DNA of 40,186 nucleotides. Source: Litorilinea aerophila. Lineage in GTDB: Bacteria; Chloroflexota; Anaerolineae; Caldilineales; Caldilineaceae. Shown in pieces: positions 2,952 to 30,500 of the stretch; the stretch's first letter is position 1; each line of letters starts with the position of its first letter. The notes under the pieces were generated by a model. The model was not told the DNA's origin. It worked only from the letters and a program-made list of their open reading frames with translations, and searched no databases. The position numbers and the translations under genes are program-made. The stretch lies in contig CAMDQF010000015.1 in NCBI GenBank assembly GCA_945905745.1, positions 1 to 40,186 on the forward strand, given 5' to 3'.

Positions 2952-3344
2952 CTACCCGCCAAAGATGCGGGACAACAGCCCCTTTTTCTTTTTGACCGGC
3001 GGGGGCGGCAGTTCGATCTTCAGTTCCGGCTCCTTTTCGTCGATGCCCAGTTGGGCTTTCAGCGCCGGTGTCATCATCTCCGGTGTCCACATGGGTTCCC
3101 AGACGATATTCACATCCGCAGACGCCGCGCCCTCGGCCATAATGACTTTCTGCACGTTTTCAATAATCTCCGGCCCCATGGGGCAATGGGGCGTGGTCAG
3201 TGTCATCGTCACCCGAACCTGTTCTTCGGCCAGTACCTCCACGCCATAGACCAGCCCCAGATCGACGATATTCTCAAAAATCTCCGGGTCGATCACCTGT
3301 TTCAACGCCTCCATCAGGCGGTCCGGCTGCAATGCTTCGCTCAT
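2952..3344 (-). CDS. MIP18/DUF59 family metal-sulfur cluster assembly protein
   Basis: 'VIDPEIFENIVDLGLVYGVEV...MTLTTPHCPMGPEI' is typical of the PaaD/SufT-like DUF59 fold. Confidence 0.88.
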   Translation of the reverse strand: MSEALQPDRLMEALKQVIDPEIFENIVDLGLVYGVEVLAEEQVRVTMTLTTPHCPMGPEIIENVQKVIMAEGAASADVNIVWEPMWTPEMMTPALKAQLGIDEKEPELKIELPPPPVKKKKGLLSRIFGG

Positions 3345-3782
3345 TTTCACTTCTTTCGTCCAATTTGTTCGCGGCACAGTCTGTCCATTCTACCCCAGAA
3401 AATGGGGGCCGGAAAACCGCCGGGGTGGAACAATTGTGTGGGCTGCACCGGACAGATGGAGAAAGCGAGATGACGCTCACGCACCACCTGCATCTTTGCA
3501 TACAGCGGGGTCAATCTAATTGGAGAGAGAAGACATTTTTTCTCAAAAACCCGTCAGGTGTCCGGTTGACTTCCCTCCCAGACCGGTCTATCATAGGTCT
3601 AGTGCAGTACAACAGAAGTTTCCAGCCGCTTCTCGTTGTACGTAGTGCGTAGTTCATCTGCCAGTTCACGCACCACGCACCAGAAGAACCATAGGCCGAT
3701 TCACGCCCCAGTATACGAATATCTGCGTCCCCTGACTCGGATCGTAAAATCTGCATTTCTCTGCTTTTGGAGCCAGTCGTCA

Positions 3783-26951: not shown

Positions 26952-26969
26952 CCACGCAAGAAATATGGG

Positions 26970-27070
26970 GTAGACCGCAGCGTGTTGGGTTCTCCTGGCA
27001 CTCGTTGGCGTGTAGATGCCGATCTCTTGCCAGGAGAACCCAACCTACGATTGGGCAGTCTGCGGTCTAC
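26970..27070 (+). repeat. 101-bp palindromic element, copy A
   Basis: Outer GTAGACCGCAG/CTGCGGTCTAC and inner GTTGGGTTCTCCTGGCA/TGCCAGGAGAACCCAAC inverted repeats; reverse complement of copy B with 5 differences in 101 nt. Confidence 0.95.
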
Positions 27071-27082
27071 AGATATGGGGTA

Positions 27083-27340
27083 ACAGAAAAGGGCCGGGCG
27101 ACTGTCGCCCGGCCCTTTTCTGTGTGGGGTGCATTTCACTTTTAGGGAAAACTGACGGTTGTGACGACCGCTCCGGGCTAAAGACCAATGGGCTGTAAGC
27201 CCACAGCTAACAAACAACGCCGGATAAATCCGGCTGGTCATCGGACGATTTTCGGCGATTCAAGCCCCCTTCAGGGGGCGTAGCTCATTAGCCCGGCGTC
27301 TTTAGCGCCGGGCGACAATCGCCCGGCCCTTTTCTGTGTG
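27083..27340. repeat. Multi-hairpin cassette (at least five successive stem-loops) bounded by a 22-bp direct repeat
   Basis: Perfect 19-bp stem ACAGAAAAGGGCCGGGCGA/TCGCCCGGCCCTTTTCTGT at 27083-27123, then further hairpins; TCGCCCGGCCCTTTTCTGTGTG at 27105-27126 and 27319-27340. Confidence 0.85.
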
Positions 27341-27436
27341 AAGGCGTTTGTGACAATTGGCGGAATCCGCTATTATCCATAGAGCCGTATGCAGCTTTCA
27401 GCTACGTAACGAATAACGGCGAATGATAAGAGGCGA

Positions 27437-30298
27437 ATGATGACCCTCCAGGCAGATATCCTCATCGTCACGGCGACCCAAGTGGAAAGCCGGGCCGTAC
27501 TCCAGACTTTTCCCAGGGCGCTGGGAAACAAAGCCACACCCCATTCCATGGATGGGCGTGTCTATTTTGACCTGGGCGCGGTACACAAGGCGCGGCTGTT
27601 TCTGACCCAATCGGAGATGGGCAGCGGTGGGCTGGACGCTTCGCACCAGACCGTGCGCAAAGGCATCGAGACCCTTCAACCGGCGGCTGTGGTGATGGTG
27701 GGCATCGCCTTTGGGGTCAACGAAGAGAAGCAGACCATCGGCGACGTGCTGGTGACGGAACAGCTCCGGCTATACGACCTCCAACGCGTCGGCACCAGCC
27801 AAGGCCAGCCCCAGTTGATTTTGCGGGGCGACAAACCCCATGCCTCGCCCTGGCTGATCAACCATTTCAAGAGTTCCGTCTTGCTGTGGGAGGGCGCGCC
27901 CGTTCGTTTTGGGGTTGTCCTGAGCGGCGAGAAGCTGGTGGACAACCTTGACTTCCGCGACCAGCTGCGCAGCCTGGAAGCAGAAGCCATTGGCGGCGAG
28001 ATGGAAGGCGCTGGCATGTATGTGGCTTGCCAGGACAAAAAAGTGGACTGGATTTTGATGAAGGCCATTTGTGATTGGGCGGATGGGAATAAAGCCCAGG
28101 ACAAAGAGGCCCGCCAACAGACCGCCGCACAGAATGCCGCGGCTTTCCTGCTCCACGGGCTGCAATTTGTGCCGGTGGACTGGGAGGGAAAACGGCGCGA
28201 GGCCGGGGCAGCCGTTCCCACGCTTACAAATACCGGCCCCGGCGCAATGGCAACGACGAGTGGCGTTGCTTCCGGTCAGGGCGGCGTTTCGATTGGGGGC
28301 AACCTCCACGGCAATGTCATCTTCCAGCCGCCCCCTCTGCCCGACCCCAAGCAGCCCACCCACTCCACACTGCCCAATCAATCCATCTTCTTTGGGCGTG
28401 CCCAAGAACTTGAAATTATCAGAACCGCCCTCTCCCCCGATTCCCGCACCTGGGGCGCGCTGATCGACGGTCCTGGCGGCATCGGCAAAACCGCGCTGGC
28501 GATTTGTGCCGGTCACAGAGCAGAAGGCTTCAATTTCAAAATTTTCATCACCGCCAAAGTGCGCGAACTGACCGCCGAAGGCGAAGCCAGACTGACCGAC
28601 TTCACCCGCCCCACCTATCTGGCCATGCTGGACGAACTGGGCAAGGAAGTGGGGGCAGACGGACTGGAAAAACTCCCGCCCGACGAGCGGCCCAACCAAC
28701 TGCGCCTGGCCCTGGCGGGCAAACAGGCGCTGGTCATCTTCGACAATCTGGAAACCCTGCCCGAAGCAGAGCGCACCCGCCTCTTCCAATTCCTCTCCCG
28801 CCTGCCCGAAGGCAACAAAGCCATCGTCACCTCCCGCCGCCGCAGCGACGTGGACGCCCGCATCGTGCGCCTGGATCGCCTGGCCCGGGACGAAGCCCTG
28901 CAACTCATCGCCGAACTGGCCCACAAATACCCGCGCTTGCAGCGCGCTTCCGAAAAAGAGCGCGCTGACCTCTACGCCATTACCCAGGGCAACCCGCTCT
29001 TCATCCGCTGGATCGCCGGGCAATTGGGGCGCGCCGGCTCCCAGTGCCGCACCATCGCCGAGGCCTGTGACTTCATTGACAGAGCGCCCAAAGGCAACGA
29101 CCCCCTCGAATACATCTTCGGCGACCTGCTGGAGAGCTTCAGCCTCGACGAGACCAAAGTCCTCGCCGCGCTGACCTATTTCAGCCTGCCCGCCAAACTC
29201 AAGTGGCTTGCGGAGATGACCGACCTGCCCGCCCGGGCCGCCGAGACCGCGCTGGAAGACCTGACCGACCGCTCCATCCTGACCGCCGACCTCTCTGCCC
29301 AGAGCTATTTTTTGCCCCCCCTGGCCGCAAAATTCATCCGCAGCCGCCGCCCCGAAGCCGTGACCGAGACCGGCGACGCCCTTACCCAGCGCGCCTACGC
29401 CCTCGCCCTGCAATACGGCGGTGGAAGCAAAAACTACGAAAAATTTCCCACGCTGGACGCCGAATGGGACTTCCTCTCCGCCGCCCTGCCCCGCTTCTTG
29501 ACCGGCGACAATGACCGCCTGCAAAGGGTGTGCGACCAACTTTATCAATTTCTCAACTTCACAGGAAGATGGGATGAGTGGCTTTGGCTCTCTGAACAGG
29601 CCGAAGCCCGCGCCCTGACCGCCGCCGACAACGAGAAGGCGGGTTGGCGGGCCTATCAAGCAGGATACATCTACCAACTCCGCAACCAGCCCGCCGAAGT
29701 GCTGGCGTGCGCCGCCCGCGCCGCCGAGCACTGGCAGGGCAGCACACCCTACAACAAAGCCACTGCCATTCTCCTGCGCGGGATCGGTCACCGACTGAAC
29801 AAAGAGTACCCCGCCGCCATCGCCGCCTACCGCGAAGCCCTGGAAATTATCCGCTCCATCTCCCCCGAAAGCGACGCTGTGGCCAGCGTGCTGAACTCTC
29901 TGGCCGCAGCAGAACGCGCCAACAAAGAGTACGCCGCCGCCGAGCGCGACTACCGCGAAGCGCTACGCATTGCAAAGATAATCAAAGACGATGAAGGCAT
30001 TGCCATCTACACAAGCAACCTGGCGGAACTCGCCCTCGACCGCGAGCAGTGGGCAGAGGCCGAGTCCCTGGCCCGCGAAGCCCTGGCGCTGGCAGAAAAA
30101 GTCGGGCGACTGGAGTTGATTGCCGACGATTGTTACCGCCTCGCCAGAGCATTGCTCAAACAGCAGCAGCGTTTAGAGGAGGCCCTGCCTTTGGCCCACC
30201 GCGCCGTCGAGATTCACACGCGGCTGCGTATGCAAGACAATTTGCAGGAAGCGCAGGAGACGCTGGCGGAGATTGAGCAGGCGCTCGGCGGGGGGTGA
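27437..30298 (+). CDS. Nucleoside phosphorylase-like domain + NB-ARC/STAND NTPase + TPR repeats (NLR-like protein)
   Basis: N-terminal PNP_UDP-like 'ILIVTATQVESRAVLQTF...VVMVGIAFGVNEEKQTIGDVLV...GGEMEGAGMYVAC'; 'FFGRAQELEIIRTAL', Walker A GPGGIGKT (28469-28492), Walker B 'ALVIFDNLE', 'AIVTSRRR'; C-terminal TPR-like units. Confidence 0.93.
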   Translation: MMTLQADILIVTATQVESRAVLQTFPRALGNKATPHSMDGRVYFDLGAVHKARLFLTQSEMGSGGLDASHQTVRKGIETLQPAAVVMVGIAFGVNEEKQTIGDVLVTEQLRLYDLQRVGTSQGQPQLILRGDKPHASPWLINHFKSSVLLWEGAPVRFGVVLSGEKLVDNLDFRDQLRSLEAEAIGGEMEGAGMYVACQDKKVDWILMKAICDWADGNKAQDKEARQQTAAQNAAAFLLHGLQFVPVDWEGKRREAGAAVPTLTNTGPGAMATTSGVASGQGGVSIGGNLHGNVIFQPPPLPDPKQPTHSTLPNQSIFFGRAQELEIIRTALSPDSRTWGALIDGPGGIGKTALAICAGHRAEGFNFKIFITAKVRELTAEGEARLTDFTRPTYLAMLDELGKEVGADGLEKLPPDERPNQLRLALAGKQALVIFDNLETLPEAERTRLFQFLSRLPEGNKAIVTSRRRSDVDARIVRLDRLARDEALQLIAELAHKYPRLQRASEKERADLYAITQGNPLFIRWIAGQLGRAGSQCRTIAEACDFIDRAPKGNDPLEYIFGDLLESFSLDETKVLAALTYFSLPAKLKWLAEMTDLPARAAETALEDLTDRSILTADLSAQSYFLPPLAAKFIRSRRPEAVTETGDALTQRAYALALQYGGGSKNYEKFPTLDAEWDFLSAALPRFLTGDNDRLQRVCDQLYQFLNFTGRWDEWLWLSEQAEARALTAADNEKAGWRAYQAGYIYQLRNQPAEVLACAARAAEHWQGSTPYNKATAILLRGIGHRLNKEYPAAIAAYREALEIIRSISPESDAVASVLNSLAAAERANKEYAAAERDYREALRIAKIIKDDEGIAIYTSNLAELALDREQWAEAESLAREALALAEKVGRLELIADDCYRLARALLKQQQRLEEALPLAHRAVEIHTRLRMQDNLQEAQETLAEIEQALGGG

Positions 30299-30330
30299 GG
30301 GTTTTCCGACGAGGGCTGCTTCAATACTCT

Positions 30331-30431
30331 GTAGACCGCAGACTGCCTAATTGTAGGTTGGGTTCTCCTGGCAAGAGATCGGCATCTACACTCCAACGAG
30401 TGCCAGGAGAACCCAACCCACTGCGGTCTAC
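30331..30431 (-). repeat. 101-bp palindromic element, copy B (inverted relative to copy A)
   Basis: Reverse complement matches 26970-27070 at 96/101 positions. Confidence 0.95.
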
Positions 30432-30500
30432 TGATTCTTCTTTGCCCAACACTATTTTGTCGGTGGAATTCAGATATCCGGCCTGGTCGGGAGCTAAAAA

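What the first reader, a model, noticed from the sequence alone, without database searches (positions are those of the whole stretch)
27437..30298. Nucleoside phosphorylase-NB-ARC-TPR protein: candidate single-gene anti-phage/abortive-infection NLR
Seen: a phosphorylase-superfamily N-terminus, a complete P-loop NTPase module (GPGGIGKT, ALVIFDNLE, AIVTSRRR) and C-terminal TPR-like repeats. Established: bacterial STAND/NLR-like proteins (Avs, bNACHT and similar) act in phage defence, and PNP/MTN-type domains occur as effector domains in NLR-like proteins of fungi and bacteria. Inference: TPRs sense a trigger and the N-terminal domain attacks nucleosides or nucleotides (for example purine N-glycosidic bonds). 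The host also has ordinary salvage enzymes nearby (PNP, two nucleoside hydrolases).
Basis: partly seen in the sequence, partly recalled or inferred. Interest (0 to 1): 0.8.

Follow-up and report, generated by a model that had tools for sequence, protein, structure and literature searches.

The report
Bacterial immune receptor with nucleotide-cutting head
This gene encodes a bacterial relative of animal and plant NLR immune receptors whose front end is an enzyme that probably destroys adenine nucleotides in infected cells; its receptor half is nearly the same in distant bacteria but carries different killer domains there, so it looks like a swappable-warhead defence protein.

Summary
In detail: 27437-30298 (+) is one 953-aa ORF with a nucleosidase-fold N-terminus (1-245), a Gly-rich linker (~262-298), an NB-ARC NTPase (313-640) and TPRs (641-953). 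Catalytic E17, E190 and D213 are intact and the fold matches MTA/SAH nucleosidases. The gene is accessory: no match in six same-genus genomes, at a synteny breakpoint between inverted 104-bp repeats. Its NB-ARC/TPR half is 76-80% identical in other families of the class, and about half identical in many phyla, but carries TIR, DUF4062 (TIR-like NADase), SEFIR, 2TM, Bell-like, EAD7 or another nucleosidase there; receptor and effector histories disagree. In one relative the same nucleosidase is a separate bDLD1 (death-like) protein beside bDLD1-NB-ARC. Best reading: an abortive-infection STAND/NLR with a nucleotide-destroying effector, a known kind (PNP effectors in NLR-like systems are published). 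New here: the chassis with swapped heads, and an internal motif that elsewhere links separate effectors and receptors, as amyloid signalling motifs do. In passing: nine actinobacterial relatives seem to need +1 recoding to join nucleosidase and NB-ARC. Phage defence and substrate are inferred, not shown.

The parts
27437..30298 (+). PNP/MTAN-NB-ARC-TPR protein, 953 aa
   Evidence: single ORF; Pfam; AF2 of the whole chain
27458..28153 (+). nucleosidase (PNP_UDP_1 / MTAN-like) effector domain, residues 8-239
   Evidence: Pfam E 1.3e-15; PADLOC 'Effector, PN-superfamily' E 5e-16; AF2 pTM 0.88; Foldseek to MTAN E 1e-20
27485..27487 (+). E17, aligns with MTAN catalytic Glu12 by hand; conserved in nearly all relatives covering it
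   Evidence: Glu12Gln MTAN mutant named in PDB title 1z5n
27824..27826 (+). R130, conserved in the conflict-associated relatives and not conserved in MTANs; possible 5'-phosphate contact (inference)
   Evidence: loop column; MTAN rows
27998..28006 (+). E188-M189-E190, ribose-binding ExE of the family
   Evidence: invariant in A4
28073..28075 (+). D213, aligns with MTAN catalytic Asp197
   Evidence: invariant in A4; Asp197Asn MTAN mutant named in PDB title 1z5o
28220..28333 (+). Gly-rich linker motif TLTNTGPGAMATTSGVASGQGGVSIGGNLHGNVIFQPP
   Evidence: shared with two caspase-like and three NACHT-FGE genes of the same genome and with Bell-like and NLR gene pairs in other genomes; AF2 disordered
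28373..29356 (+). NB-ARC NTPase with winged-helix region, residues 313-640
   Evidence: Foldseek to 6mfv (STAND-TPR), Avs3, Apaf-1, CED-4
28469..28492 (+). Walker A GPGGIGKT (345-352)
   Evidence: G345, G347, G348, G350, K351, T352 at least 90% conserved in A3
28727..28753 (+). Walker B ALVIFDNLE (431-439)
   Evidence: L432 and E439 invariant, D436 at least 90% in A3
28820..28843 (+). AIVTSRRR (462-469), sensor-like motif of AP-ATPases
   Evidence: S466 invariant, T465, R467, R469 at least 90% in A3
29357..30295 (+). TPR superhelix, residues 641-953, presumed sensor
   Evidence: Pfam; mostly pLDDT above 90
26970..27073 (+). left copy of a dispersed 104-bp palindromic repeat (about 40 matches in the genome)
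30328..30431 (-). right, inverted copy of the same repeat, 95% complementary
   Evidence: homology to congeners starts at 30435

Best explanation
A single-chain STAND/NLR immune receptor. Resting state: the TPR superhelix and winged-helix region hold the NB-ARC module closed. A trigger (most likely a phage protein) binds the TPRs; nucleotide exchange lets the chains oligomerise; the N-terminal nucleosidase domains are brought together and become active, cutting the N-glycosidic bond of an abundant adenine nucleotide (ATP/dATP most likely, NAD or a nucleoside as alternatives). The infected cell stops or dies before phage release. Shown here: architecture, intact catalytic residues, nucleosidase fold, accessory distribution, effector swapping on a conserved receptor, and a split version joined by a death-like domain. 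Inferred: phage as trigger, TPR as sensor, oligomerisation, substrate, cell death.
For: Domain architecture. Catalytic residues invariant in seven PNPs of this kind and in nearly all further ones; fold matches MTAN. No match in six same-genus genomes. Receptor half 76-80% identical across families of the class but with other N-termini: DUF4062, TIR, SEFIR, 2TM, EAD7, Bell-like. Receptor tree: 19 N-terminal changes over 46 rows; the four PNP receptors are rejected as one clade. Window PNP is nearest L136/L138 (65% overall to L136, 76% over the last third to both) while its NB-ARC is nearest DUF4062/2TM receptors (86-88%) against 61-62% to L136/L138. L141 joined a different PNP (about 31%) to the same chassis. 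G221 has bDLD1-PNP beside bDLD1-NB-ARC-WD40. Published: PNP effectors in NLR-like systems, (d)ATP degradation (PMC10952713); Detocs PNP cuts ATP to adenine and ribose-5'-triphosphate (PMC11249213); DUF4062 is an antiphage NADase (PMC13174449).
Against: No member of this chassis is known here to have been tested against phage; PADLOC does not recognise the NB-ARC. The gene does not lie in a recognisable defence island (neighbours are metabolic). No homologue in phage or viral contigs, so mobility by phage is not shown. The nearest named enzymes by sequence are MTA/SAH nucleosidases, so a small-nucleoside substrate is not excluded.
Confidence: 0.68

Rival explanations
1. Same NLR-like switch, but the trigger is not phage: a programmed-death or self/non-self system of filamentous bacteria (plasmid entry, stress, neighbour recognition), as NLRs with PNP_UDP domains may do in fungi.
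For: Members and relatives lie in Chloroflexota, Cyanobacteria, Actinobacteria and Planctomycetes, many with multicellular life (PMC7159879, PMC8195603); the host carries other STAND/caspase/FGE loci and DGRs.
Against: The swapped effectors (TIR, DUF4062, PNP) are of kinds shown elsewhere to stop phage; the receptor is also found in groups not known for multicellularity, e.g. Methylomonas, Desulfobulbaceae.
Confidence: 0.17
2. The PNP domain makes or removes a second messenger or nucleotide signal rather than depleting the pool; a further effector acts downstream.
For: Proposed for PNPase domains of ternary conflict systems (PMC7159879); the linker motif could recruit caspase-like effectors encoded elsewhere in this genome.
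Against: No partner gene next to the window gene; TIR, DUF4062, 2TM and Bell-like domains occupy the same position on the same receptor, which suggests interchangeable end effectors.
Confidence: 0.09
3. An ordinary regulator or metabolic enzyme: NB-ARC-TPR regulator of AfsR/SARP type with a salvage nucleosidase attached.
For: Nearest PDB and NCBIfam matches of the N-domain are MTAN/futalosine hydrolases; salvage genes lie nearby.
Against: No DNA-binding domain found; NCBIfam MTAN score 66 against a cut-off of 169; no match in congeners; receptor shared with NADase and membrane domains.
Confidence: 0.03
4. The PNP domain is a dead, ligand-binding domain.
For: A related PNP fused to HsdS (L125) has lost E188, E190 and D213.
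Against: All catalytic residues are intact in the window protein and in nearly all STAND-linked relatives.
Confidence: 0.03

Closest known systems
PNP (Cap17-type) effectors of CBASS, Detocs, pAgo, DRT8 and NLR-like systems (Rousset et al. 2023, as summarised in PMC10952713 and PMC11249213)
   Same: PNP_UDP_1 domain as effector, including in NLR-like proteins; catalytic residues intact
   Different: Substrate not tested here; the window PNP is nearest to MTAN by sequence and has no TPALS/SLOG partner domain
Swarozyc / DUF4062 TIR-like NADase (PMC13174449)
   Same: The closest relatives of the window receptor carry DUF4062 at the same place (L078-L080, L084)
   Different: Window protein has a nucleosidase instead; the paper's named system was not compared in full
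STAND/AP-ATPase with TPR, PDB 6mfv; Avs3 (8dgc); Apaf-1
   Same: NB-ARC plus superhelical sensor; among the best Foldseek matches
   Different: Low TM-scores over the whole chain; no PADLOC match of the NB-ARC to named Avs models
Bacterial amyloid signalling sequences (BASS 1-10) and fungal PUASM (PMC7889193, PMC9815663)
   Same: Short Gly/Ala/Asn-rich motif shared by effector C-termini (Bell-like, caspase-like) and NLR N-termini in neighbouring genes; in fungi one such motif is specific to PNP_UDP effectors
   Different: In the window it lies between a fused effector and NB-ARC in one chain; not compared with the BASS profiles; amyloid formation untested
bDLD/EAD conflict systems (PMC7159879, PMC8195603)
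   Same: G221 relative has bDLD1-PNP and bDLD1-NB-ARC-WD40 side by side
   Different: Window protein has no EAD; effector and receptor are directly fused

Membership tests
STAND / AP-ATPase (NB-ARC) NTPase | Walker A, Walker B, sensor motif and winged-helix region | tested here: met
   GPGGIGKT, ALVIFDNLE, AIVTSRRR conserved in 27-row alignment; AF2 and Foldseek
STAND / AP-ATPase (NB-ARC) NTPase | C-terminal superstructure-forming repeats | tested here: met
   TPR_12/TPR_10, helices 641-953
NLR-like antiphage system | variable N-terminal effector on a conserved switch | tested here: met
   ten N-terminal types on one chassis, 19 changes
NLR-like antiphage system | protects against phage | not testable with these tools
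   needs expression and phage challenge
PNP/Cap17 ATP-nucleosidase effector | PNP_UDP_1 fold with intact catalytic Glu/Asp | tested here: met
PNP/Cap17 ATP-nucleosidase effector | cuts (d)ATP to adenine and ribose-5'-triphosphate | not testable with these tools
   R130 near the 5' pocket is suggestive only
PNP/Cap17 ATP-nucleosidase effector | sequence relation to the Detocs PNP | not tested
   no reference sequence held; PADLOC PN-superfamily effector model matches
Avs1-5 / named PADLOC systems | match of the NTPase to a system model | tested here: not met
   only PNP and TPR models match
MTA/SAH nucleosidase (housekeeping) | NCBIfam equivalog cut-off | tested here: not met
   66.1 bits against 169
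Amyloid signalling motif (BASS-like) | motif shared by effector C-terminus and NLR N-terminus of neighbouring genes | tested here: inconclusive
   met for the motif family in L112 and L108 and for the caspase/NACHT pair in C64; in the window protein itself the motif is internal and no partner gene is adjacent
Amyloid signalling motif (BASS-like) | belongs to one of BASS 1-10 or forms cross-beta fibres | not testable with these tools
   no BASS profiles held; fibre assay needed

The most novel reading that the evidence does not exclude
The linker is a homotypic (amyloid-like) signalling motif, a bacterial counterpart of fungal PUASM. The fused nucleosidase-NLR would then seed free effectors bearing the same motif (caspase-like proteins elsewhere in this genome), so one receptor could fire its own nucleosidase and recruit others in trans. 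In actinobacterial relatives the balance of free effector and fused receptor would be set by +1 recoding at a UAG/UAA stop between nucleosidase and NB-ARC.
Probability: 0.25. Interest if true: 0.85.

Novelty: new variant of a known kind. Interest (0 to 1): 0.56.

Why it matters
One nearly constant receptor found with TIR, DUF4062, SEFIR, nucleosidase, membrane and death-adaptor heads is a natural domain-swap experiment: it makes testable whether a bacterial NLR's trigger is independent of its effector, and whether depletion of ATP, depletion of NAD and membrane damage are interchangeable outcomes of one sensor. The internal motif gives a concrete case for asking whether bacterial NLRs signal by templated assembly with enzymatic effectors, as fungal PNP_UDP effectors appear to do. 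The recoding candidate in relatives, if real, would be a new way to set the effector-to-receptor ratio.

Tried and rejected
Core gene: rejected, no match in six same-genus genomes. Phage- or plasmid-borne copy: no viral-contig or phage match; plasmid matches are partial, best 45% to a Rhizobium PNP. Simple empty site: not found; left flank matches G006:C70:7355-12351 and G001:C49, right flank G006:C70:141403 and G001:C57, so this is a rearrangement breakpoint rather than a clean insertion. A pan-PNP clade of receptors: rejected. Linker as a known Pfam domain: no match in the window; one Bell-like protein with the motif gave a sub-threshold YadA_head match (E 0.03), so a beta-roll rather than an amyloid is not excluded. 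Base composition: GC of the gene (about 0.59-0.63) does not differ clearly from its neighbours. A wider Streptomyces survey failed at the server and then at the cap.

Full report
WHAT IS THERE. The ORF 27437-30298 (+) exists as described: 953 aa from an ATG. Pfam finds PNP_UDP_1 at 8-239 (E 1.3e-15), weak NB-ARC/AAA_16 at 318-530 and TPRs at 777-937. PADLOC recognises the first domain as its 'Effector, PN-superfamily' (E 5e-16) but not the NTPase. AlphaFold2 of residues 1-245 with a seven-row alignment gives pTM 0.88, and Foldseek returns MTA/SAH nucleosidases (E about 1e-20, TM about 0.8). The full-length model (pLDDT 77; NB-ARC and TPR good, linker 252-306 disordered; the PNP domain is poorly modelled there, probably because few rows cover it) matches the STAND-TPR structure 6mfv, Avs3, Apaf-1 and CED-4.

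ACTIVE SITE. Profile alignment to MTAN structures, plus a hand alignment of the N-terminal strand, puts E17, E190 and D213 on MTAN Glu12, Glu174 and Asp197; PDB titles 1z5n (Glu12Gln) and 1z5o (Asp197Asn) name two of them as mutated residues. E188, M189, E190 and D213 are invariant in seven conflict-type PNPs, and the Glu/Asp set is kept in nearly all further ones. A PNP fused to a type I HsdS subunit (L125) has lost them, which shows that loss can occur elsewhere. The phosphate-binding N-terminal motif that I recall for true phosphorylases (GDPxR) is absent, so hydrolysis rather than phosphorolysis is likely (inference from general knowledge). R130 is conserved in the conflict PNPs and not in the MTANs aligned, near the 5'-substituent pocket; this hints at a 5'-phosphorylated substrate but is not proof, since two other non-STAND nucleosidase-like proteins (L022, L025) also carry an Arg there.

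ACCESSORY, AT A BREAKPOINT. In 61 genomes searched, none of the six same-genus genomes has a match to the first 298 residues at E <= 0.001. The gene lies between inverted copies (26970-27073 and 30328-30431, 95%) of a 104-bp repeat with about 40 matches in the genome. Homology to congeners resumes at 30435 on the right and ends at 26952 on the left; the two flanks are about 130 kb apart in G006 and on different contigs in G001. So the gene sits at a synteny breakpoint. A repeat-mediated assembly misjoin cannot be wholly excluded in this draft genome.

ONE RECEPTOR, MANY HEADS. In 396 genomes of the class, residues 304-950 match at 76-80% in G383, G260, G150, G239, G285 and G248, all in other families, yet their N-termini differ (the N-terminus of G285 is cut off). 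A scan of 84,980 species genomes extends the chassis at 44-81% to Chlorobiota, Thermodesulfobacteriota, Ignavibacteriota, Cyanobacteria (Nodosilinea), Acidobacteriota, Planctomycetota, Verrucomicrobiota, Armatimonadota, Nitrospira and Pseudomonadota (mostly MAGs, so single labels may be wrong). N-termini: DUF4062, TIR_2, SEFIR, EAD7, two-TM by inspection, a Bell-like helical domain in L085 (E 6e-13 to small motif-bearing proteins), coiled coils, short Gly motifs, and PNP. On a receptor tree of 46 rows the ten types need 19 changes, and the four PNP receptors are rejected as one clade (quick tree). The window's NB-ARC is 86-88% identical to DUF4062/2TM receptors but 61-62% to the other PNP receptors, while its PNP is 59-65% identical to theirs over the domain and 71-76% over the last third. 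This is a head swap. L141 shows a second, distant PNP (about 31%) put independently on the same chassis. In G221 the same PNP (55%) is a separate bDLD1-PNP protein next to a bDLD1-like-NB-ARC-WD40 protein (bDLD1 scored by Pfam in the first, seen by eye in the second).

THE LINKER. Residues 262-298 recur in the same genome in two caspase-like genes and three NACHT-FGE genes; three of these five were not used to build the model (E 2e-8 to 1e-11 or better). In other genomes of the class the motif lies at the C-terminus of small Bell-like helical proteins and at the N-terminus of neighbouring NLRs (L112, L108). That is the arrangement by which bacterial amyloid signalling sequences were defined (PMC7889193), and fungi have such motifs specific to PNP_UDP effectors (PUASM, PMC9815663). 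The PNP-NLR L138 keeps the same linker; L136 lacks it and L083 has a different one, so it is not needed for the fusion. Amyloid formation is untested and a beta-roll is possible.

MECHANISM. Shown by sequence: nucleosidase, NTPase switch, TPRs, head swapping, accessory spread. Inferred: TPR sensing, oligomer activation, adenine-nucleotide destruction, abortive infection. Published anchors: PNP effectors in NLR-like and other systems degrade (d)ATP (PMC10952713), Detocs PNP cuts ATP (PMC11249213), DUF4062 is an antiphage NADase (PMC13174449). That heads with such activities share one receptor is the strongest argument for an immune role.

A LEAD OUTSIDE THE WINDOW. In nine actinobacterial loci a PNP ORF ending in '..YGGDHIDFRGGTFHGPVIGKQ..' stops at TAG (8) or TAA (1), and the NB-ARC-TPR continues in the +1 frame; the stop lies 148-187 nt before the P-loop. 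Four of the nine have no ATG/GTG/TTG in that frame before the P-loop; most other actinobacterial NB-ARC ORFs in the set have five or more. A CTG start is unlikely, because L177 has CTC at the otherwise conserved CTG. L171, L172, L173 and L200 have both parts in one ORF. The same motif begins a neighbouring opposite-strand ORF with an NB-ARC-like start in L172, L185 and L200. Long ORFs in these nine loci, the nine PNP ORFs included where they pass the filter, end 35 TGA, 15 TAG, 5 TAA, so the absence of TGA at the site is notable, though the loci are related and not independent. +1 recoding is the simplest reading; it needs a reporter test.

VERDICT. Not a new kind of system, but a clear head-swapping NLR chassis with an unusual internal motif.

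Noticed in passing
L176, L177, L181, L185, L186, L195, L201, L209, L210 (Streptomyces), PNP/NB-ARC junctions: Nine relatives have PNP and NB-ARC-TPR in overlapping frames: the PNP ORF ends at TAG (8) or TAA (1), NB-ARC continues at +1, and four have no usual start codon before the P-loop. Candidate conserved +1 recoding between effector and receptor.
   Followed up: partly
L172, L185, L200, opposite strand near the PNP-NB-ARC gene: A neighbouring ORF with an NB-ARC-like N-terminus begins with the same motif (YGGDHVDFRGGEFRGPVVAK) that ends the PNP ORFs: an effector/receptor motif pair like an amyloid signalling motif.
   Followed up: no
L225 5221-5337 / 3321-3437 and L226 5086-5207 / 3234-3355 (own genome, contigs C14 and C40): Two likely diversity-generating retroelements: repeat pairs next to reverse transcriptase genes where all 12 of 12 mismatches fall on one template letter (A on the coding strand); the variable copy is the C-terminus of FGE-type STAND-like proteins.
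   Followed up: partly
G000:C64 (L009, L076, L077) and C123 (L075): Caspase-like genes next to NACHT-FGE genes, sharing the window's linker motif; a tyrosine recombinase lies nearby in C64.
   Followed up: partly
L125 3397-5757 (-): HsdS specificity subunit fused to a PNP domain with lost catalytic residues, in a type I R-M operon beside ATPase and HNH-like genes resembling PtuA/PtuB (by inspection).
   Followed up: no
L088, L089, L090, L092 N-termini: Versions of the receptor chassis with no effector, only a short motif NRSGGADxNxxxxxIGGDVVGRDK; likely receptor-side motifs for a separate effector.
   Followed up: no
window 26955-27436: The upstream intergenic stretch is built of several dispersed repeat families, also abundant in congeners G001 and G005.
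   Followed up: partly
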